From Ensifer sp. BR816 (GTDB lineage Bacteria; Pseudomonadota; Alphaproteobacteria; Rhizobiales; Rhizobiaceae), in the NCBI RefSeq assembly GCF_000378985.1, contig NZ_KB905370.1:496001-560000 (forward strand): a stretch of 64,000 nucleotides of DNA, written 5' to 3'. Positions 24,819 through 30,559 of this stretch are shown piece after piece. How positions within the stretch are numbered: the stretch's first letter is position 1; every line of letters starts with the position of its first letter. The notes under the pieces are model-generated. The model did no database searches, was not told the origin of the DNA, and worked only from the letters and a program-made list of their open reading frames with translations. A program made the position numbers and the translations under genes.

Positions 24819-25430
24819 TCATGAAACCGGATCCGAAGCGAGCGTGCTGACGGCGGTGCGGGCGCGTTCGAGGAATTCGTCCTTCTCCTCACCCGGCCGT
24901 CTTACAAGCGGCGCGCCGAAGCGAACCGTGCAGCTGATCGGCACCGGCAGGAAGGTTCCCTTGGGGAAGGCGCGCGAGGGGTTGTCGAGATAGGTCGGAA
25001 TCAGTTCGACCTCCGGGAATTCCTGCGACAGCCAGTAGAGACCGCTCTTGAACGGTCCCGGCAGGCGCTCGCTGCCGCGCGTTCCCTCGGGAAAGAGAAC
25101 GAGCGACTCGCCCTCGGCGAGCACGCCGCGCAAGGGGGCGAGCGCCGCCCCGGGCGGACCCTGCGTGGCACGGTCGACGAGCACGGCATTCAACACCTTG
25201 AGCGCAATGTGGCGGCGGAGCTTGCCCCTGCCCCAATAGTCTGCGGCGGCGATCGGGTGGGTGGATGCGCGCAGCGGCCGCGGCAGCGCCGACCAGATCA
25301 ACAGCGTGTCGAGATGGCTGGCGTGATTGGCGAAATAGATGCGCTGGCGCGTATCCGGCACGGCCCCGATCCATTGCGCCTGCCCGCCGACGAGAAACCG
25401 GGTGAGGCCGATCAAAAGCAGATCGATCAC
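24819..25430 (-). CDS. 1-acyl-glycerol-3-phosphate acyltransferase family (PlsC-like)
   Basis: Membrane-associated acyltransferase of about 203 residues that acylates a lysophospholipid-type acceptor. Motif I is FANHASHLDTLLIW with the catalytic His and Asp (HX4D), and motif III is FPEGTRGSERL. I place the start at the GTG (25430-25428), which overlaps the preceding gene's TGA as GTGA; this gives VIDLLLIGLTRFLVGG, a hydrophobic start normal for the family. It lies between the CDP-alcohol transferase and the cytidylyltransferase genes. Confidence 0.87.
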   Translation of the reverse strand: MIDLLLIGLTRFLVGGQAQWIGAVPDTRQRIYFANHASHLDTLLIWSALPRPLRASTHPIAAADYWGRGKLRRHIALKVLNAVLVDRATQGPPGAALAPLRGVLAEGESLVLFPEGTRGSERLPGPFKSGLYWLSQEFPEVELIPTYLDNPSRAFPKGTFLPVPISCTVRFGAPLVRRPGEEKDEFLERARTAVSTLASDPVS

Positions 25431-26092
25431 GGCTTTGCGGCTCCCGAAATGCGCGAGACGATCGCCCGGGTGCGGGTCCAGCAGGTGAGAAGCGCGCCGG
25501 CGAGGATGATCCACCCAGCCGCGTAAAGCACGATGCGCTCCGCCGTCAGCCAGGCTTCGCCGAGCGCCAGGAGACAGGCAAGGCTCATCAGCGCCATGCG
25601 ATGCTGCTTGGCCATCGGACCGCGAAAGTCCTGGGCCTGGCCGAGCGAGCCGCCGAAGACGCGCACATAGGCGGTCAAGGCCGCGGCAAGCGCGCCAGCC
25701 CAGCCGAGCCAGCCGGCGCCGGCGGCGTAGCCGAGCGCCACGATCAGCAGCGTGTCTGCGACACGATCGGGAAACTCGTTGTAGAGCGCGCCGACCGGCG
25801 AGCCACGGCCGCCCTCGACAGCCACCATGCCGTCAAGCAGATTGCAGAGAAGCCGCAACTGGATGCCGGCGACGGCGACGAGATAGAGCAACGGCCAGCG
25901 CGGCGCGAAGACGAGCGCCGCCGCGCCGATCGCGGCAAACCCGATGCTCAACAGCGAAATCCCGTTCGGCGTGATCGGCGTCTTGAGGAGCAGCGCCGTC
26001 AGGCGACGCGCGAAGCCGCTGTCTCGCGCCGCAATGGGGCGCCGATCAGCGCCCGGCCCGCCGGGCTCTCCGCCATCCGGAGCGACATTCAT
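25427..26092 (-). CDS. CDP-alcohol phosphatidyltransferase-like protein with a degenerate signature
   Basis: A 221-residue membrane protein with the family fold but altered active site. At ~84-110 the sequence reads NLLDGMVAVEGGRGSPVG then ALYNEFPD, where the family signature D-x2-DG-x2-AR-x8-G-x3-D-x3-D expects four Asp and an Arg. Here the first and third Asp are Asn and the Arg is Val. Five or so hydrophobic helices follow. It starts the three-gene lipid operon and overlaps the acyltransferase by four bases. Either a distinct subfamily with other chemistry or a non-catalytic partner. Confidence 0.75.
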   Translation of the reverse strand: MNVAPDGGEPGGPGADRRPIAARDSGFARRLTALLLKTPITPNGISLLSIGFAAIGAAALVFAPRWPLLYLVAVAGIQLRLLCNLLDGMVAVEGGRGSPVGALYNEFPDRVADTLLIVALGYAAGAGWLGWAGALAAALTAYVRVFGGSLGQAQDFRGPMAKQHRMALMSLACLLALGEAWLTAERIVLYAAGWIILAGALLTCWTRTRAIVSRISGAAKP

Positions 26093-26229: not shown

Positions 26230-28926
26230 TCATCCACCGCCCTTCTCCGCGGTTCCAGCGTCAGCAGCGGGGAAGCGCATGGAAATACGCGTTCCGCGGC
26301 GCCGGAGCGCCGGGCTCTCCGCCTTGATCCGTCCGCCCATGGCCTCGACGAAGCTCTTGCTGATCGTCAGGCCGAGGCCGGTGCCGAGCGAGCGAGCGTC
26401 CGGCTTGCCCTTGCGGAAGAATTTGTCGAAGACGTGCTCGAGATCGGCCGGCGCGATACCCTTGCCGAGGTCGGTCACCGACAGCACGACCGCGTCGCCC
26501 TCCCGCCGGGCATAGATGCTGACCGGTTCGTCGCCGCCGAACCGGTCGGCATTGTCGAGCAGATTGAAGAGGACTTGGCCGAGCAGGAGGCCGTCGCCGC
26601 GCATCGACGGCAGGTCTGCGGCGATGCTTGTCTCGAATATGCGGCCGGGAAAGTATTTCCGCGCCCGTTCGACGGCGACGTGAACGACTTCAGCCACATC
26701 GACCCGATCGCGCCTGGCATTGATCGTCCCGGCCTCGATCCGGTTCATGTCGAAGAGGTTTGCGACGAAGTGCGTCAGCCTGCCGCTTTCCTCCTCGATC
26801 GACTGCAGAAGATCCTCCCGGTCCTCCTTCGGCATTCCGTCGCCAATCTGGCGGAGGGTGGTCACGGCGCCGGCAATCGTCGCCAGGGGCGTCGTGAGGT
26901 CCTGGGAGAGCGACGAAAGTAGGGCCGCGCGGAATTTCTCGCCCTCGAGCTGGGCAGCCTGATCGGAGGTTTCACGCGACAGCCGGGCGCGGTCGACGGC
27001 AATCGCGGTCTGGTCGAGAATCGCGGCAAGGGCCCGCTCCTCGTTGATCTCGAGCGGCCGGTCCTCCTGCAGAAAGCCGCAAACACCGACGACACCCTGT
27101 GGGCTCGTGAGCGGCCTGAACTGAAACGGGCTGTTCGGCAGCGTTCCGGTATCGTTGCCGGCCGCCTCCTTCTTCTCGAAGGCCCAGCGCGCCGCCATCC
27201 TGTCGCTGACGGAAAGTTCGGTGTCCGGCGGCCAGGCCACCTTCAAGGCAAGATCACCGTCTTCCGGCAGCAACAGCACGGCGTTGCGCCTCAGCGTCGC
27301 CTGCATCTGGGTGACGGCGGCCCAGAGCACGTCTTCGGCATTGGCGGTGCCGGAAAGCTTGCGGGAGAAATCATAGAGCGCCTGCGTCGTTGTCGCTCGG
27401 CCCCGTGCCGTCTTCGCCTGCTCGCGAATGCGCGAGGCAAGGCCGCCGGCGAGCGCCGCTGCCGCCAGGAAAACGAAGAGAGCGAAGACCTCGTGCGGCT
27501 CGGCCACCGTGAATGTGCCGACCGGCTCGATGAAGAAGAAATTATAGGCGAGAACGGAAAACAGCGCGGCCGCCAGAGCCGCGAAGTAGCCGGCGTAAAT
27601 GGCCGAGGCGATCACCGCGAGCAGATAGAGAAGCGAAATATTCTGCAGGATGATGAACTGCTCGACCAGTAGGCCGAACGCCGTCGCCAGCCCGACCGTA
27701 CCAGCGGCTATACCGAAGGCCCGCCCCAGTCCCTCCGGCAGCGGCCGCTTGCTTGTCCGTCTCGGCTTCGCGGGCGGCTCGCTCTTGCCCGTGACGAGGT
27801 GAATGCCGACACCGGAAACGCGCTTGGCCAGCGCATCCGGCAAGGAGGCACGGAACAGGCTCAGCGGGAACCAGTGGCGGCGCGCGCCGATGACGATCTG
27901 CGTCGCATTCTCGCGCCTTGCGAGCTTCAGGATCTCCTCGACGAAATCGCTGCCGACGATGCGGAGCGTCCCGGCGCCCAGCTGCTCGGCGAGACGGAAG
28001 GTCTCGTCGAGCTGCCGCATCGCCTCGCCGTCGCCCGATTCTCGATCCGCGCGCTCGATGGAAACGACGATCCAGTCCGCGTTCAATCCCGAGGCAAGCC
28101 GGCTTGCCGTCCTCACCACCTTTTCCGACAGCGGATCCGGGCCGATGCAGACGAGAAGCCTCTCGCCCGCCGGCCACGGACCCTCTATGGCGTTCTGCTT
28201 CAGGTAGTCGACCATCTGGTCGTCGACCCGGTCGGCGGTCCGACGCAGCGCCAACTCGCGCAGCGCCGTCAGATTGCCGAGCCGAAAGAAATTGTCCGCG
28301 GCCCGCTTGGCACTGTCGGGCAGGTAGACCTTGCCTTCCTTCAGCCGGTCGATCAGTTCCGCCGGTGGCAGGTCGACCAGCAGCACCTCGTCGGCCCGGT
28401 TCAGGACCGTGTCGGGAATCCGCTCGCGCACCGGCACGCCGGCAATCTGGGCGACGATGTCCGACAGGCTTTCGAGATGCTGGATGTTGAGCGCCGTCCA
28501 GACATCGATGCCGGCATCCACCAGTTCCTCGATATCCTGGTAGCGCTTGGGATGGCGGCCTTCGCCGAGATTGGTGTGGGCGAGTTCGTCGACGACGATG
28601 ATCCGCGGACGGCGGGCCAGTGCGGCGTCGAGATCGAACTCGTGGAGCGTGCGTCCGCTGTGCGCGACGTCGCGGCGCGGCAAGATCTCCAGCCCTTCGA
28701 GCAGCGCCGCGGTCTCGCTGCGTCCATGGGTCTCGACAAGTCCGATGACGATGTCGGCGCCCTCTTGCCTGAGACGCTGTGCCCTCGTCAGCATGGCGTA
28801 GGTCTTGCCGACGCCGGGCGCGGCGCCGAGGAACACCGTCAGCTTGCCTCTGCCGCCTCGTTCGGCCAGCGCCAGCAGGGCATCGGGATCGGGGCGGCTC
28901 GCCAGGTCGCGATCAATCTCGGACAT
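26230..28926 (-). CDS. KdpD-like sensor kinase lacking the phospho-accepting histidine
   Basis: An 898-residue KdpD architecture. Residues 1-~210 are the KdpD N-terminal domain with Walker A GAAPGVGKT (34-42) and DELAHTN; ~235-370 is a universal-stress-protein domain; four membrane spans lie at ~395-490; a GAF-type region follows; the kinase region ends the protein. The H-box reads SSLSQDLTTPLATI, with Gln (CAG, bases 26904-26902, residue ~675) where KdpD has His (SHDLRTPL). The ATP-binding boxes NLLDNADRFGG, DLGKGIAP, FDKFFRKG and GTGLGLTIS are intact. No kdpE or kdpFABC is nearby. Start at 28926 (MSEIDRDLA). Likely a pseudokinase or phosphatase-type sensor. Confidence 0.88.
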   Translation of the reverse strand: MSEIDRDLASRPDPDALLALAERGGRGKLTVFLGAAPGVGKTYAMLTRAQRLRQEGADIVIGLVETHGRSETAALLEGLEILPRRDVAHSGRTLHEFDLDAALARRPRIIVVDELAHTNLGEGRHPKRYQDIEELVDAGIDVWTALNIQHLESLSDIVAQIAGVPVRERIPDTVLNRADEVLLVDLPPAELIDRLKEGKVYLPDSAKRAADNFFRLGNLTALRELALRRTADRVDDQMVDYLKQNAIEGPWPAGERLLVCIGPDPLSEKVVRTASRLASGLNADWIVVSIERADRESGDGEAMRQLDETFRLAEQLGAGTLRIVGSDFVEEILKLARRENATQIVIGARRHWFPLSLFRASLPDALAKRVSGVGIHLVTGKSEPPAKPRRTSKRPLPEGLGRAFGIAAGTVGLATAFGLLVEQFIILQNISLLYLLAVIASAIYAGYFAALAAALFSVLAYNFFFIEPVGTFTVAEPHEVFALFVFLAAAALAGGLASRIREQAKTARGRATTTQALYDFSRKLSGTANAEDVLWAAVTQMQATLRRNAVLLLPEDGDLALKVAWPPDTELSVSDRMAARWAFEKKEAAGNDTGTLPNSPFQFRPLTSPQGVVGVCGFLQEDRPLEINEERALAAILDQTAIAVDRARLSRETSDQAAQLEGEKFRAALLSSLSQDLTTPLATIAGAVTTLRQIGDGMPKEDREDLLQSIEEESGRLTHFVANLFDMNRIEAGTINARRDRVDVAEVVHVAVERARKYFPGRIFETSIAADLPSMRGDGLLLGQVLFNLLDNADRFGGDEPVSIYARREGDAVVLSVTDLGKGIAPADLEHVFDKFFRKGKPDARSLGTGLGLTISKSFVEAMGGRIKAESPALRRRGTRISMRFPAADAGTAEKGGG

Positions 28927-28992: not shown

Positions 28993-30168
28993 CTATTTGG
29001 CGGCGATATCGACTCTGGCAACCGGCTTGGCCGTCGGTTCCGGCTGGTTCGCCACTTCGTGCATCCACTCCCGCCAGATCGCGACCAGCAGCGCCATCAG
29101 CACCGGGCCGACGAAAAGGCCAAGGAAGCCCATCGTCTTGACCCCGCCGACCAGGCCGAAAAAGGTCGGCAGGAAGGGAAGCTTGATCGGGCCGCCGACG
29201 AGCCTCGGACGCAGCGTCTTGTCGACGATGAAGAGCTCAGTCGTACCCCAGGCAAAGAGCGCAACGCCGTGGAAGGGCGAGCCACTCGCCACCAGATAGA
29301 TCGAAACGAGCGTGAAGCAGAGCGGTGCGCCGCCCGGAATGAGCGCCATGAGGCCAGTGATGATGCCGAGCGTCACCGGCGACGGCACGCCGGCCAGCCA
29401 GTAGGCGACGCCGAGCACGATGCCTTCGCCGATCGCGATGGTGCCCATGCCGGTCACGGTCGAGCTGATCGTCAGCGGCACGACGCGCGACAGCCGCTCC
29501 CAGCGCATCGGGAAGATCTGCTCGCCGAGGCGATCGAGCTGCTTCGAGAAGGCATGGCCGTCGCGATAGACGAAGAACAGCGTGATCAGCATGAAGAGCA
29601 GCGTCAGGAAGGACTGGAAGGCAGAAGCGCCGATCACCAGGACGCCGCGGTAGATGTTGCCGATATTGGAGCCGCTGACGAGCTGAACCAGTTCGCCAAG
29701 CGCGCCCGGATGCCCGACATATTTCACCCATTGCTGACCAAGCCAGGCGCCGGCGACGGGGATTGTCGTCAGCCAGGCCGGGACCGGCGCTCCATTCACG
29801 TTGGTTTCCACCGACCAGACGAGCCAGTCGCGCACCTCGTCCACCGCATAGGCCGCGGCGATCGAAATCGGCACGACGATAAAGGCGACAACGGAGGTAA
29901 TCGCAATGGTCGCCGCAAGCGTCCGATTGCCGGTCAGGGCCTGAAGCAGCCGCCGATAGATCGGCCAGCTCGCAAAACCGATGACGACGGCGGCAAGCAC
30001 CGGGACGACGAAGCCGTGGAAGAAGTAGACACCGGCGAAGAGCACGAGGACGAGCAGCCAGCGGGCAGCCGAAATCGGCAGGACGAGGGCCGAGCGCGAA
30101 TGGGGAGGCTGCCCGAAGAGCCGCGGCTCCGCCGGGAGATTTTCTCGCTCACGATTGCCCAATTGCAC
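28993..30168 (-). CDS. AI-2E family transporter (YdiK/PerM type)
   Basis: A polytopic membrane protein of 391 residues with about eight spans: two tight N-terminal hairpins, a periplasmic segment (~85-150), then the C-terminal set. Family strings are FVYRDGHAFSKQLDRLGEQI, GIITGLMALIPGGAPLCFTLV, and LRPRLVGGPIKLPFLPTFFGLVGG. Transport substrates are unproven for most members; some act as Na+/H+ antiporters, so the AI-2 name should not be taken literally. I choose the GTG at 30168 with GGAGGA 7 bases before it. It lies 66 bases upstream of the KdpD-like gene on the same strand, so the two may be co-expressed. Confidence 0.83.
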   Translation of the reverse strand: MQLGNRERENLPAEPRLFGQPPHSRSALVLPISAARWLLVLVLFAGVYFFHGFVVPVLAAVVIGFASWPIYRRLLQALTGNRTLAATIAITSVVAFIVVPISIAAAYAVDEVRDWLVWSVETNVNGAPVPAWLTTIPVAGAWLGQQWVKYVGHPGALGELVQLVSGSNIGNIYRGVLVIGASAFQSFLTLLFMLITLFFVYRDGHAFSKQLDRLGEQIFPMRWERLSRVVPLTISSTVTGMGTIAIGEGIVLGVAYWLAGVPSPVTLGIITGLMALIPGGAPLCFTLVSIYLVASGSPFHGVALFAWGTTELFIVDKTLRPRLVGGPIKLPFLPTFFGLVGGVKTMGFLGLFVGPVLMALLVAIWREWMHEVANQPEPTAKPVARVDIAAK

Positions 30169-30559
30169 CTGTAGTCCTCCGTCTTTCAAGAACCTTACAT
30201 CAATCCCGCAGGCTTGCCAGCCCGTCTCCTGCCCCTATGAGAGCTTTCGACATCAAGAGAGCTGCGTCTCCAAATCATCGCCACGGTCAGCGATCAATTC
30301 ACAATTGCCGTGATCGTCCGGCGAAGGCGTAGCGGACGGACATGACAGGGAGATTTCGATGCATTCGAGCGCCGTTGCCGTCAAAATCCGTCACGCGCAT
30401 CGCATCGGCATTATTGACGTTTACGTCAAAGTTATATAATTCCGATTAGTGCTTGAAGATACGCTGGAAAAGCAGCATCTTCGCTCGGGAGGGAAGATCG
30501 GGAGGGATTTTTCTTCGCCGTGAGCAAGGCCGTTCGTTGCCATTACAGGGAGAGAGATC
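30169..30559. promoter_or_regulatory. Divergent control region with fadD promoter and dyad operator
   Basis: A 391-base gap. A perfect dyad TTGACGT-TT-ACGTCAA lies at 30414-30429. It contains a -35 (TTGACG, 30414-30419) and runs into the spacer before a perfect -10 (TATAAT, 30435-30440; 15-base spacing). A bound regulator would therefore block or, if MerR-like, realign the promoter. I see nothing else identifiable between 30169 and 30400. Confidence 0.65.

What the first reader, a model, noticed from the sequence alone, without database searches (positions are those of the whole stretch)
26230..28926. KdpD-like sensor with Gln in place of the phospho-accepting His
The H-box reads LSQDLTTPLATI where KdpD has LSHDLRTPL; the codon is CAG (26904-26902). 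Every other part expected of a full-length KdpD is present, including Walker A, USP domain, four spans and intact N/G1/F/G2 ATP-binding boxes. Without the His, autophosphorylation by the normal route is impossible, yet the ATP site is conserved, which argues for selection. There is no kdpE or kdpFABC next to it; its upstream neighbour is an AI-2E family membrane protein. It may be a phosphatase-only sensor, a heterodimer partner of the true KdpD, or a c-di-AMP/K+ sensor with another output.
Basis: partly seen in the sequence, partly recalled or inferred. Interest (0 to 1): 0.75.

Follow-up and report, generated by a model that had tools for sequence, protein, structure and literature searches.

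The report
Stranded potassium sensor losing its kinase
This is a leftover potassium-sensor gene whose former operon partners were deleted around it; its histidine-kinase half is decaying and in this one genome has lost its key histidine, while its front half stays under strong selection, which suggests it survives for a different, serine-kinase-like job.

Summary
In detail: the 898-aa KdpD at 26230-28926 (-) has Gln675 (CAG) where the phospho-accepting His should be, with the ATP boxes present. But the Gln is private to this genome: 7 of 7 orthologues in its Sinorhizobium clade have His. The genome has another, canonical kdpABC-kdpD-kdpE set with intact His. The window gene is the stranded remnant of a second kdp operon: relatives carry kdp genes on both sides of it at the same site, whereas 8 of 8 genomes of this clade keep only kdpD. 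The AI-2E neighbour is a bystander. The same stripping to kdpD happened independently in Shinella, where two genomes have Asn for the His. In both groups constraint is relaxed mainly in the HisKA-HATPase core (omega 0.050 to 0.105; 0.036 to 0.082), less (fredii clade) or not measurably (Shinella) in the front domains. Best reading: with kdpE gone, histidine-kinase output became dispensable, while the N-terminal domain, a serine kinase of KdpB in E. coli, is still selected, perhaps acting on the other pump. That last step is inferred. Phosphatase, heterodimer and drift explanations remain open. New variant of a known kind.

The parts
26230..28926 (-). orphan type-1 kdpD, 898 aa, His675 replaced by Gln
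26902..26904 (-). codon CAG (Gln675) at the phospho-acceptor position; CAC in 7 of 7 clade orthologues
28225..28851 (-). KdpD domain (PF02702), residues 26-234; in E. coli KdpD the corresponding domain is an atypical serine kinase
   Evidence: PMC11018627 passages
28801..28827 (-). Walker A GAAPGVGKT (residues 34-42)
28585..28593 (-). Walker B VDE (residues 112-114)
27817..28161 (-). Usp domain, residues 256-370
27403..27714 (-). DUF4118 membrane region, residues 405-508
26728..26928 (-). HisKA (DHp), residues 667-733, without the acceptor His
26263..26598 (-). HATPase_c, residues 777-888, N/G1/F/G2 boxes present
28993..30189 (-). AI-2E family membrane protein: upstream flank of the former operon, a bystander
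25427..26092 (-). ORF called cdpOH here (no Pfam hit; the label is by eye and recall): downstream flank of the former operon

Best explanation
The gene is the surviving kdpD of a type-1 kdp operon whose pump genes and kdpE were lost from this site in the ancestor of a clade of Sinorhizobium (S. fredii-like) genomes, while another kdp operon serves K+ uptake (shown by synteny and tree). With its response regulator gone, the histidine-kinase output lost its use: constraint on HisKA-HATPase relaxed about two-fold, and in this genome the acceptor His became Gln by one transversion, which should end the histidine autokinase route (relaxation shown; loss of activity inferred). The protein is nevertheless under strong purifying selection, most clearly in its front half. 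The likeliest reason is the N-terminal Walker-A/B domain, which in E. coli KdpD phosphorylates KdpB Ser162 at high K+ independently of the acceptor His; here it would act as a K+-gated serine-kinase brake on the remaining pump, whose KdpB keeps the TGES serine (inferred). The window gene would thus be a full-length KdpD reduced to its serine-kinase output.
For: In-situ remnant: AI2E-kdpD-cdpOH in 8 of 8 clade genomes, kdpD-kdpE-cdpOH in 4 others (whole order with kdpABC read in L006, one of the four), AI2E-cdpOH without kdp in 9. Type-1 KdpE not found in the genome; best match 49% = the canonical one. Canonical KdpD with SHDLKTPL beside kdpABC and kdpE; 8 of 8 clade genomes have a second KdpD and a KdpA elsewhere. 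Domain-specific relaxation, fredii clade: HisKA-HATPase omega 0.050 to 0.105 (2dlnL 19.2), KdpD+USP 0.053 to 0.072 (3.8), TM+GAF 0.082 to 0.109 (3.5); domain x orphan interaction p about 0.017. Replicate in Shinella: 0.036 to 0.082 (23.5) against 0.047 to 0.055 (1.3) and 0.064 to 0.059 in TM+GAF; interaction p about 6e-5. Three neighbour genes show no rise in the fredii clade. His lost in 3 of 15 stranded KdpDs (two events) and in 0 of 74 KdpDs with a kdp neighbour. Walker A and B kept in 8 of 8 fredii-clade and 6 of 6 Shinella stranded copies; KdpB serine kept. E. coli KdpD H673A and a DHp-CA deletion keep KdpB phosphorylation (PMC11018627, passages).
Against: No activity is shown. One Shinella genome (G276) keeps a stranded KdpD yet has no KdpA, and its sensor half is not clearly relaxed (0.066 against 0.052), so a KdpB target cannot explain that copy. 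The kinase core is still well constrained (0.06-0.10, far below 1), and in Shinella the Asn pair is less relaxed there (0.061) than the His-bearing stranded copies (0.087-0.104). In the fredii clade the front half as a whole is also relaxed, ratio about 1.2-1.4, 2dlnL about 5.7, and the interaction is only p about 0.017. The canonical KdpD in the same genome also has the serine-kinase domain, so why a second is kept is unexplained. The G082 stranded copy has 15 changes at near-invariant sites, in both halves. One linked KdpD (L031: kdpABC, no kdpE match in the held DNA) keeps His.
Confidence: 0.5

Rival explanations
1. Regulatory pseudokinase of the two-component kind: the His-less protein still dephosphorylates KdpE of the canonical system, or forms heterodimers with the canonical KdpD, damping or tuning its output.
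For: The D/E-x-x-T motif beside the lost His is kept in 102 of 102 aligned type-1 KdpDs (D/E at 676, T at 679), the ATP boxes are present, and the core keeps omega about 0.1. Precedent: a ChrS pseudokinase that heterodimerises with HrrS (PMC9491836, abstract).
Against: The HisKA-HATPase core is the part that relaxed most; the only close KdpE left is 49% identical to the lost cognate and the canonical KdpD is 46% identical, so docking is doubtful. His-bearing orthologues elsewhere in the clade would have to do something different.
Confidence: 0.2
2. Drift: a redundant leftover gene on its way out; the Gln is one neutral step and the remaining constraint reflects slow decay or past selection.
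For: Gln is private to one of 8 clade genomes; the window protein has 4 changes at near-invariant sites, all in the kinase core, against 0-2 in the seven orthologues (chance of 4 of 4 in that domain 0.0035); a second KdpD exists.
Against: No disrupted copy in 8 of 8 clade genomes (two end a few residues earlier); omega is 0.094 on the orphan branches and 0.099 on the window branch; front-half constraint changed far less than the core, and not measurably in Shinella; kdpD alone was kept in at least three independent operon losses.
Confidence: 0.22
3. Sequencing or assembly error, or a mutation private to the sequenced strain.
For: A single transversion (CAC to CAG), seen in one genome only; no second strain of the species was available here.
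Against: It lies in a 6.13 Mb contig of a 3-contig, 99.99% complete assembly; the same column is changed to Asn in two Shinella stranded copies; three further unusual core changes accompany it.
Confidence: 0.06

Closest known systems
Escherichia coli KdpD, tandem serine/histidine kinase (PMC11018627; abstract, found passages, sections 8 and 18)
   Same: Same domain order; Walker A G-x5-GKT, Walker B DE, Usp, membrane region, GAF, DHp, CA.
   Different: Acceptor His replaced by Gln; no kdpE or kdpABC beside it; a second KdpD in the genome.
HK-less KdpD versions (KdpD/Usp only, or C-terminally truncated), e.g. Deinococcus geothermalis (PMC11018627, section 8)
   Same: Serine-kinase domain kept with no histidine-kinase output; such versions are reported mostly in species without KdpE.
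   Different: Those lack or truncate the transmitter; here it is full length and only the acceptor and a few core residues are changed, and this species has a KdpE for its other system. That survey counted only the full-length variant where a species had several.
Canonical KdpD of Sinorhizobium fredii CCBAU45436 (PMC9239096; abstract and found passages)
   Same: KdpD family, same genus group.
   Different: It is the type-2 KdpD: 14 of 14 residues named in that paper fit this genome's canonical copy at one offset, at most 4 of 14 fit the orphan or the four orphan orthologues tried. No second KdpD is mentioned in the passages I saw.
Histidine-kinase pseudokinases such as the Corynebacterium ChrS CA-domain frameshift variant (PMC9491836, abstract)
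   Same: A sensor kinase that has lost its catalytic route yet matters.
   Different: ChrS lost its CA domain in laboratory evolution; here the acceptor is lost and CA is present.

Membership tests
KdpD sensor family | N-terminal KdpD domain PF02702 plus Usp, DUF4118, GAF, HisKA, HATPase_c order | tested here: met
   all over Pfam cut-offs
KdpD sensor family | genetic linkage to kdpFABC/kdpE (usual, not strictly defining) | tested here: not met
   lost in this clade. kdpF was not looked for
HisKA histidine kinase (active) | phospho-accepting His in the H-box | tested here: not met
   Gln675; no conserved substitute: His719 is Arg in 92 of 102
HisKA histidine kinase (active) | N, G1, F, G2 boxes | tested here: met
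HisKA-type phosphatase motif | D/E-x-x-T/N just after the His position (recalled motif) | tested here: met
   D676, T679. Activity not tested
KdpD-type atypical serine kinase | Walker A G-x5-GKT and Walker B DE | tested here: met
KdpD-type atypical serine kinase | adenine pair (W39/R190 in E. coli) | tested here: inconclusive
   the residue after GKT is Tyr here, as in the canonical copy; the Arg in LIDRLKEGKVY is present by eye. The matching pattern failed in stranded G180 and in two linked Shinella copies
KdpD-type atypical serine kinase | phosphorylates the KdpB Ser of TGES | not testable with these tools
   the TGES serine is present in the KdpB of the genome's one KdpA-bearing operon; activity unknown

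The most novel reading that the evidence does not exclude
In Rhizobiaceae, kdp operons are repeatedly stripped in place down to kdpD, usually where another kdp operon is present, and the stranded KdpD becomes a full-length K+-gated serine kinase without histidine-kinase output that controls a foreign pump. The window protein (Gln) and two Shinella proteins (Asn) are independent end states in which even the acceptor His is gone.
Probability: 0.35. Interest if true: 0.62.

Novelty: new variant of a known kind. Interest (0 to 1): 0.45.

Why it matters
KdpD was recently shown to carry two kinases, and which output selection preserves is an open question. Stranded KdpDs are natural separation-of-function cases: the partner regulator is gone, the histidine-kinase half relaxes most, the front half much less or not at all, and the acceptor His has been lost at least twice. 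If the serine-kinase reading is right, these proteins show that post-translational control of the pump alone can keep the gene, and they offer ready-made material for testing it.

Tried and rejected
AI-2E as a functional partner: rejected, because 9 Sinorhizobium genomes have AI-2E beside the same downstream gene with no kdp, and no AI-2E match was seen in the held flanks of the stranded L060, L073 and L074.

A substitute acceptor His: His719 is His in 8 and Arg in 92 of 102 sequences, His749 and His831 vary; rejected.

Gln as a conserved group feature: rejected. Faster decay of the whole protein on the window branch: not seen; its omega equals that of the other orphans.

Clade-wide relaxed selection as the cause: rejected; neighbours cdpOH, acylT and AI2E show slightly lower omega in the clade (16 of the 21 held close cdpOH genomes, and for AI2E 8 clade genomes plus 7 of 9 others; the rest were left out by me).

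Relaxed serine-kinase half in the pump-less genome G276, expected if KdpB is the target: not clearly seen; counted against my reading.

Literature: 'KdpD' with 'H673Q' gave 0 papers; phrases such as 'orphan KdpD' or 'second KdpD' gave 7 papers, listing only, none by title or abstract start about stranded KdpDs; 'KdpD' with 'atypical serine kinase' gave only PMC11018627; 'KdpD' with 'Shinella' gave 1 unrelated listing. Searches were used as listings to choose papers. I recall laboratory H673Q work on E. coli KdpD but saw no text of it. A search meant to name the window's species (two listings) led nowhere.

Limits: omega fits use my own codon-model script with limited iterations (in one search a nested 4-class fit came out 0.03 below the 3-class one); trees are from the same gene. 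The fredii tests used 14 of the 25 aligned sequences (8 orphans and 6 of 17 others, chosen by me), the Shinella tests 17 of 17. Interaction tests scan a grid of ratios. Near-invariant sites were defined on 94 sequences, three of them stranded Shinella/Rhizobium copies. Linked against unlinked was read by eye. ORF picking is crude: in one genome (G285) an antisense ORF hid kdpD; its copy L060 with 10 kb flanks was used instead. For G289 only 1.5 kb flanks were held.

Full report
What is there. The minus-strand ORF 26230-28926 encodes an 898-aa KdpD with the complete domain order. The H-box reads LLSSLSQDLTTPLATI; codon 26904-26902 is CAG. Walker A, Walker B and the N, G1, F and G2 boxes are present.

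Is the Gln shared? No. A scan of genome contigs gave 80 loci (445 candidates confirmed, the best 80 kept): 79 have His, one (L060, Shinella) has Asn, none has Gln. In the genus search 29 of 33 genomes have a KdpD match. Eight genomes including this one hold a close copy (89-91% identity to the window protein) and form one clade with 100% ultrafast bootstrap; 7 of the 7 others have His, codon CAC. The Gln is therefore one transversion seen in this genome alone. I had no second strain of the species.

A canonical KdpD exists. The genome has a second KdpD at C1:3218482-3221130, 46% identical, with SISHDLKTPL, beside kdpA, kdpB, kdpC and kdpE (kdpF was not looked for). It is the type studied in S. 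fredii CCBAU45436: 14 of 14 residues named in PMC9239096 fit it at one offset, and at most 4 of 14 fit the orphan. The lost type-1 KdpE has no close relative left in the genome; the best match is the canonical KdpE at 49%.

The window gene is a remnant. Ensifer aridi (L006) has pgi-acs-AI2E-kdpABC-kdpD-kdpE-cdpOH-acylT-cdsA (its AI2E as a partial match); the window and its clade have pgi-acs-AI2E-kdpD-cdpOH-acylT-cdsA. A close orthologue of the downstream gene was found in 21 of 33 genomes; of the other 12, nine distant matches were fetched, two were not, and one genome had none. Of the 21, 8 have kdpD alone, 4 have kdpD-kdpE, and 9 have AI-2E directly adjacent. So the operon sat between AI-2E and cdpOH, and both sides of kdpD were later removed. 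AI-2E is a bystander.

The same thing happened elsewhere. In 247 Rhizobiaceae genomes, 128 have KdpD (136 matches) and 127 have KdpA. By eye, seven KdpDs have no KdpA nearby on the same contig, and six more lie near contig ends with KdpA on another contig or not found. Of these 13, G000 and G011 were already held and I fetched the other 11, plus 20 of the linked ones chosen by hand: all 20 linked have His; of the 11, ten have His and one (G180) has Asn. In the genus of G180 (21 genomes, 18 with a match) 17 type-1 KdpDs were read: 11 linked, all His; 6 without kdp neighbours in the held DNA, 2 Asn and 4 His; and 6 type-2 copies, all linked, all His. The Asn pair is sister to a linked His copy (100%), and another stranded pair is sister to a linked copy (83%); shared downstream genes point to loss in place in both cases. 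A KdpA elsewhere was found in 14 of 15 genomes with a stranded KdpD: G000 and 13 of the 14; G276 has none.

His loss and stranding. Of the 80 loci, 74 have at least one kdp neighbour and 0 of 74 lost it. Raw Fisher p is 0.004, but the rows are not independent. Three KdpD-KdpE pairs without a pump nearby all keep His, which would fit KdpE rather than the pump as what holds the His in place; but L031, with kdpABC and no kdpE match in the held DNA, keeps His too, and 12 of 15 stranded copies keep it.

Selection. Fredii clade: omega 0.094 against 0.066 elsewhere (2dlnL 17.6); window branch 0.099, not different from its clade. By domain: KdpD+USP 0.053 to 0.072 (2dlnL 3.8), TM+GAF 0.082 to 0.109 (3.5), HisKA-HATPase 0.050 to 0.105 (19.2); on the window branch the sensor is at 0.047. 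Taken together the front half is also relaxed, ratio about 1.2-1.4 (2dlnL about 5.7), against about 2.1 for the core; interaction p about 0.017. Shinella: KdpD+USP 0.047 to 0.055 (1.3), TM+GAF 0.064 to 0.059, HisKA-HATPase 0.036 to 0.082 (23.5); interaction p about 6e-5. Within Shinella the core omega is 0.061 in the Asn pair, 0.087 in G276 and 0.104 in the other stranded copies: the His-less pair is not the most relaxed. Control neighbours in the fredii clade go slightly down (cdpOH 0.101 to 0.087, acylT 0.140 to 0.112, AI2E 0.048 to 0.038). The window protein has four changes at near-invariant sites, H675Q, L725F, V780L and G844A, all in the kinase core (chance 0.0035). The core still has omega near 0.1, so its fold is kept.

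Mechanism. In E. coli KdpD the N-terminal domain is an atypical serine kinase that phosphorylates KdpB Ser162 at high K+; H673A and deletion of DHp-CA do not abolish this, Walker A changes do (PMC11018627, passages). HK-less KdpDs are known and go with absence of KdpE, but as truncations, and where a species had several variants only the full-length one was counted (section 8; method in section 18). The stranded KdpDs keep Walker A and B in 8 of 8 fredii-clade and 6 of 6 Shinella copies, and the KdpB of this genome's pump keeps the TGES serine. I therefore favour a full-length KdpD kept for the serine-kinase output and its K+ input, with the histidine kinase obsolete. Shown: remnant status, loss of partner, relaxation centred on the core, private Gln. 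Inferred: loss of autophosphorylation, serine-kinase activity, target.

Against it: a pump-less genome keeps a stranded KdpD; the canonical KdpD also has the domain; the D/E-x-x-T motif is kept in 102 of 102, which would allow a phosphatase; heterodimers are possible (ChrS precedent, PMC9491836, abstract).

Verdict. The Gln alone is a private substitution of modest interest. The recurrent stranding of kdpD with relaxation centred on its histidine-kinase half is the real finding: a new variant of a known kind.

Noticed in passing
L060, L163, L192, L193 (Shinella genomes G285 and G180): Stranded KdpDs with Asn in place of the acceptor His, shared by two genomes whose KdpDs are 95% identical; independent of the Gln in the window.
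   Followed up: yes
L162, L164, L165 (G172, G229, G246): Second KdpD-KdpE pairs without a pump beside them in the held DNA, His intact; possibly two-component systems with other targets.
   Followed up: partly
L220 / L074 (G276): Stranded KdpD in a genome with no KdpA match; its G2 box no longer reads GTGLGL.
   Followed up: partly
G024:C24:180115-181762: KdpA appears as two overlapping pieces: perhaps a split or frameshifted pump subunit.
   Followed up: no
G085:C2:884067-884564: KdpD match covers only positions 1-166 of the domain in a 223-aa frame, near kdpA: a truncated KdpD.
   Followed up: no
window contig C1 (6,127,971 bases); also G008 C1 (6,476,459): Large main contigs where G007 and G009 have about 3.9 Mb; possibly a fused chromosome and chromid (recalled idea, not tested).
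   Followed up: no
26890-26904 and orthologues: 8 of 8 clade copies have Thr at His+3 (S[HQ][DE]LTTPL) where linked relatives mostly have Arg/Lys; two have Glu at His+1. This suggests the H-box was already changing before the His was lost.
   Followed up: partly
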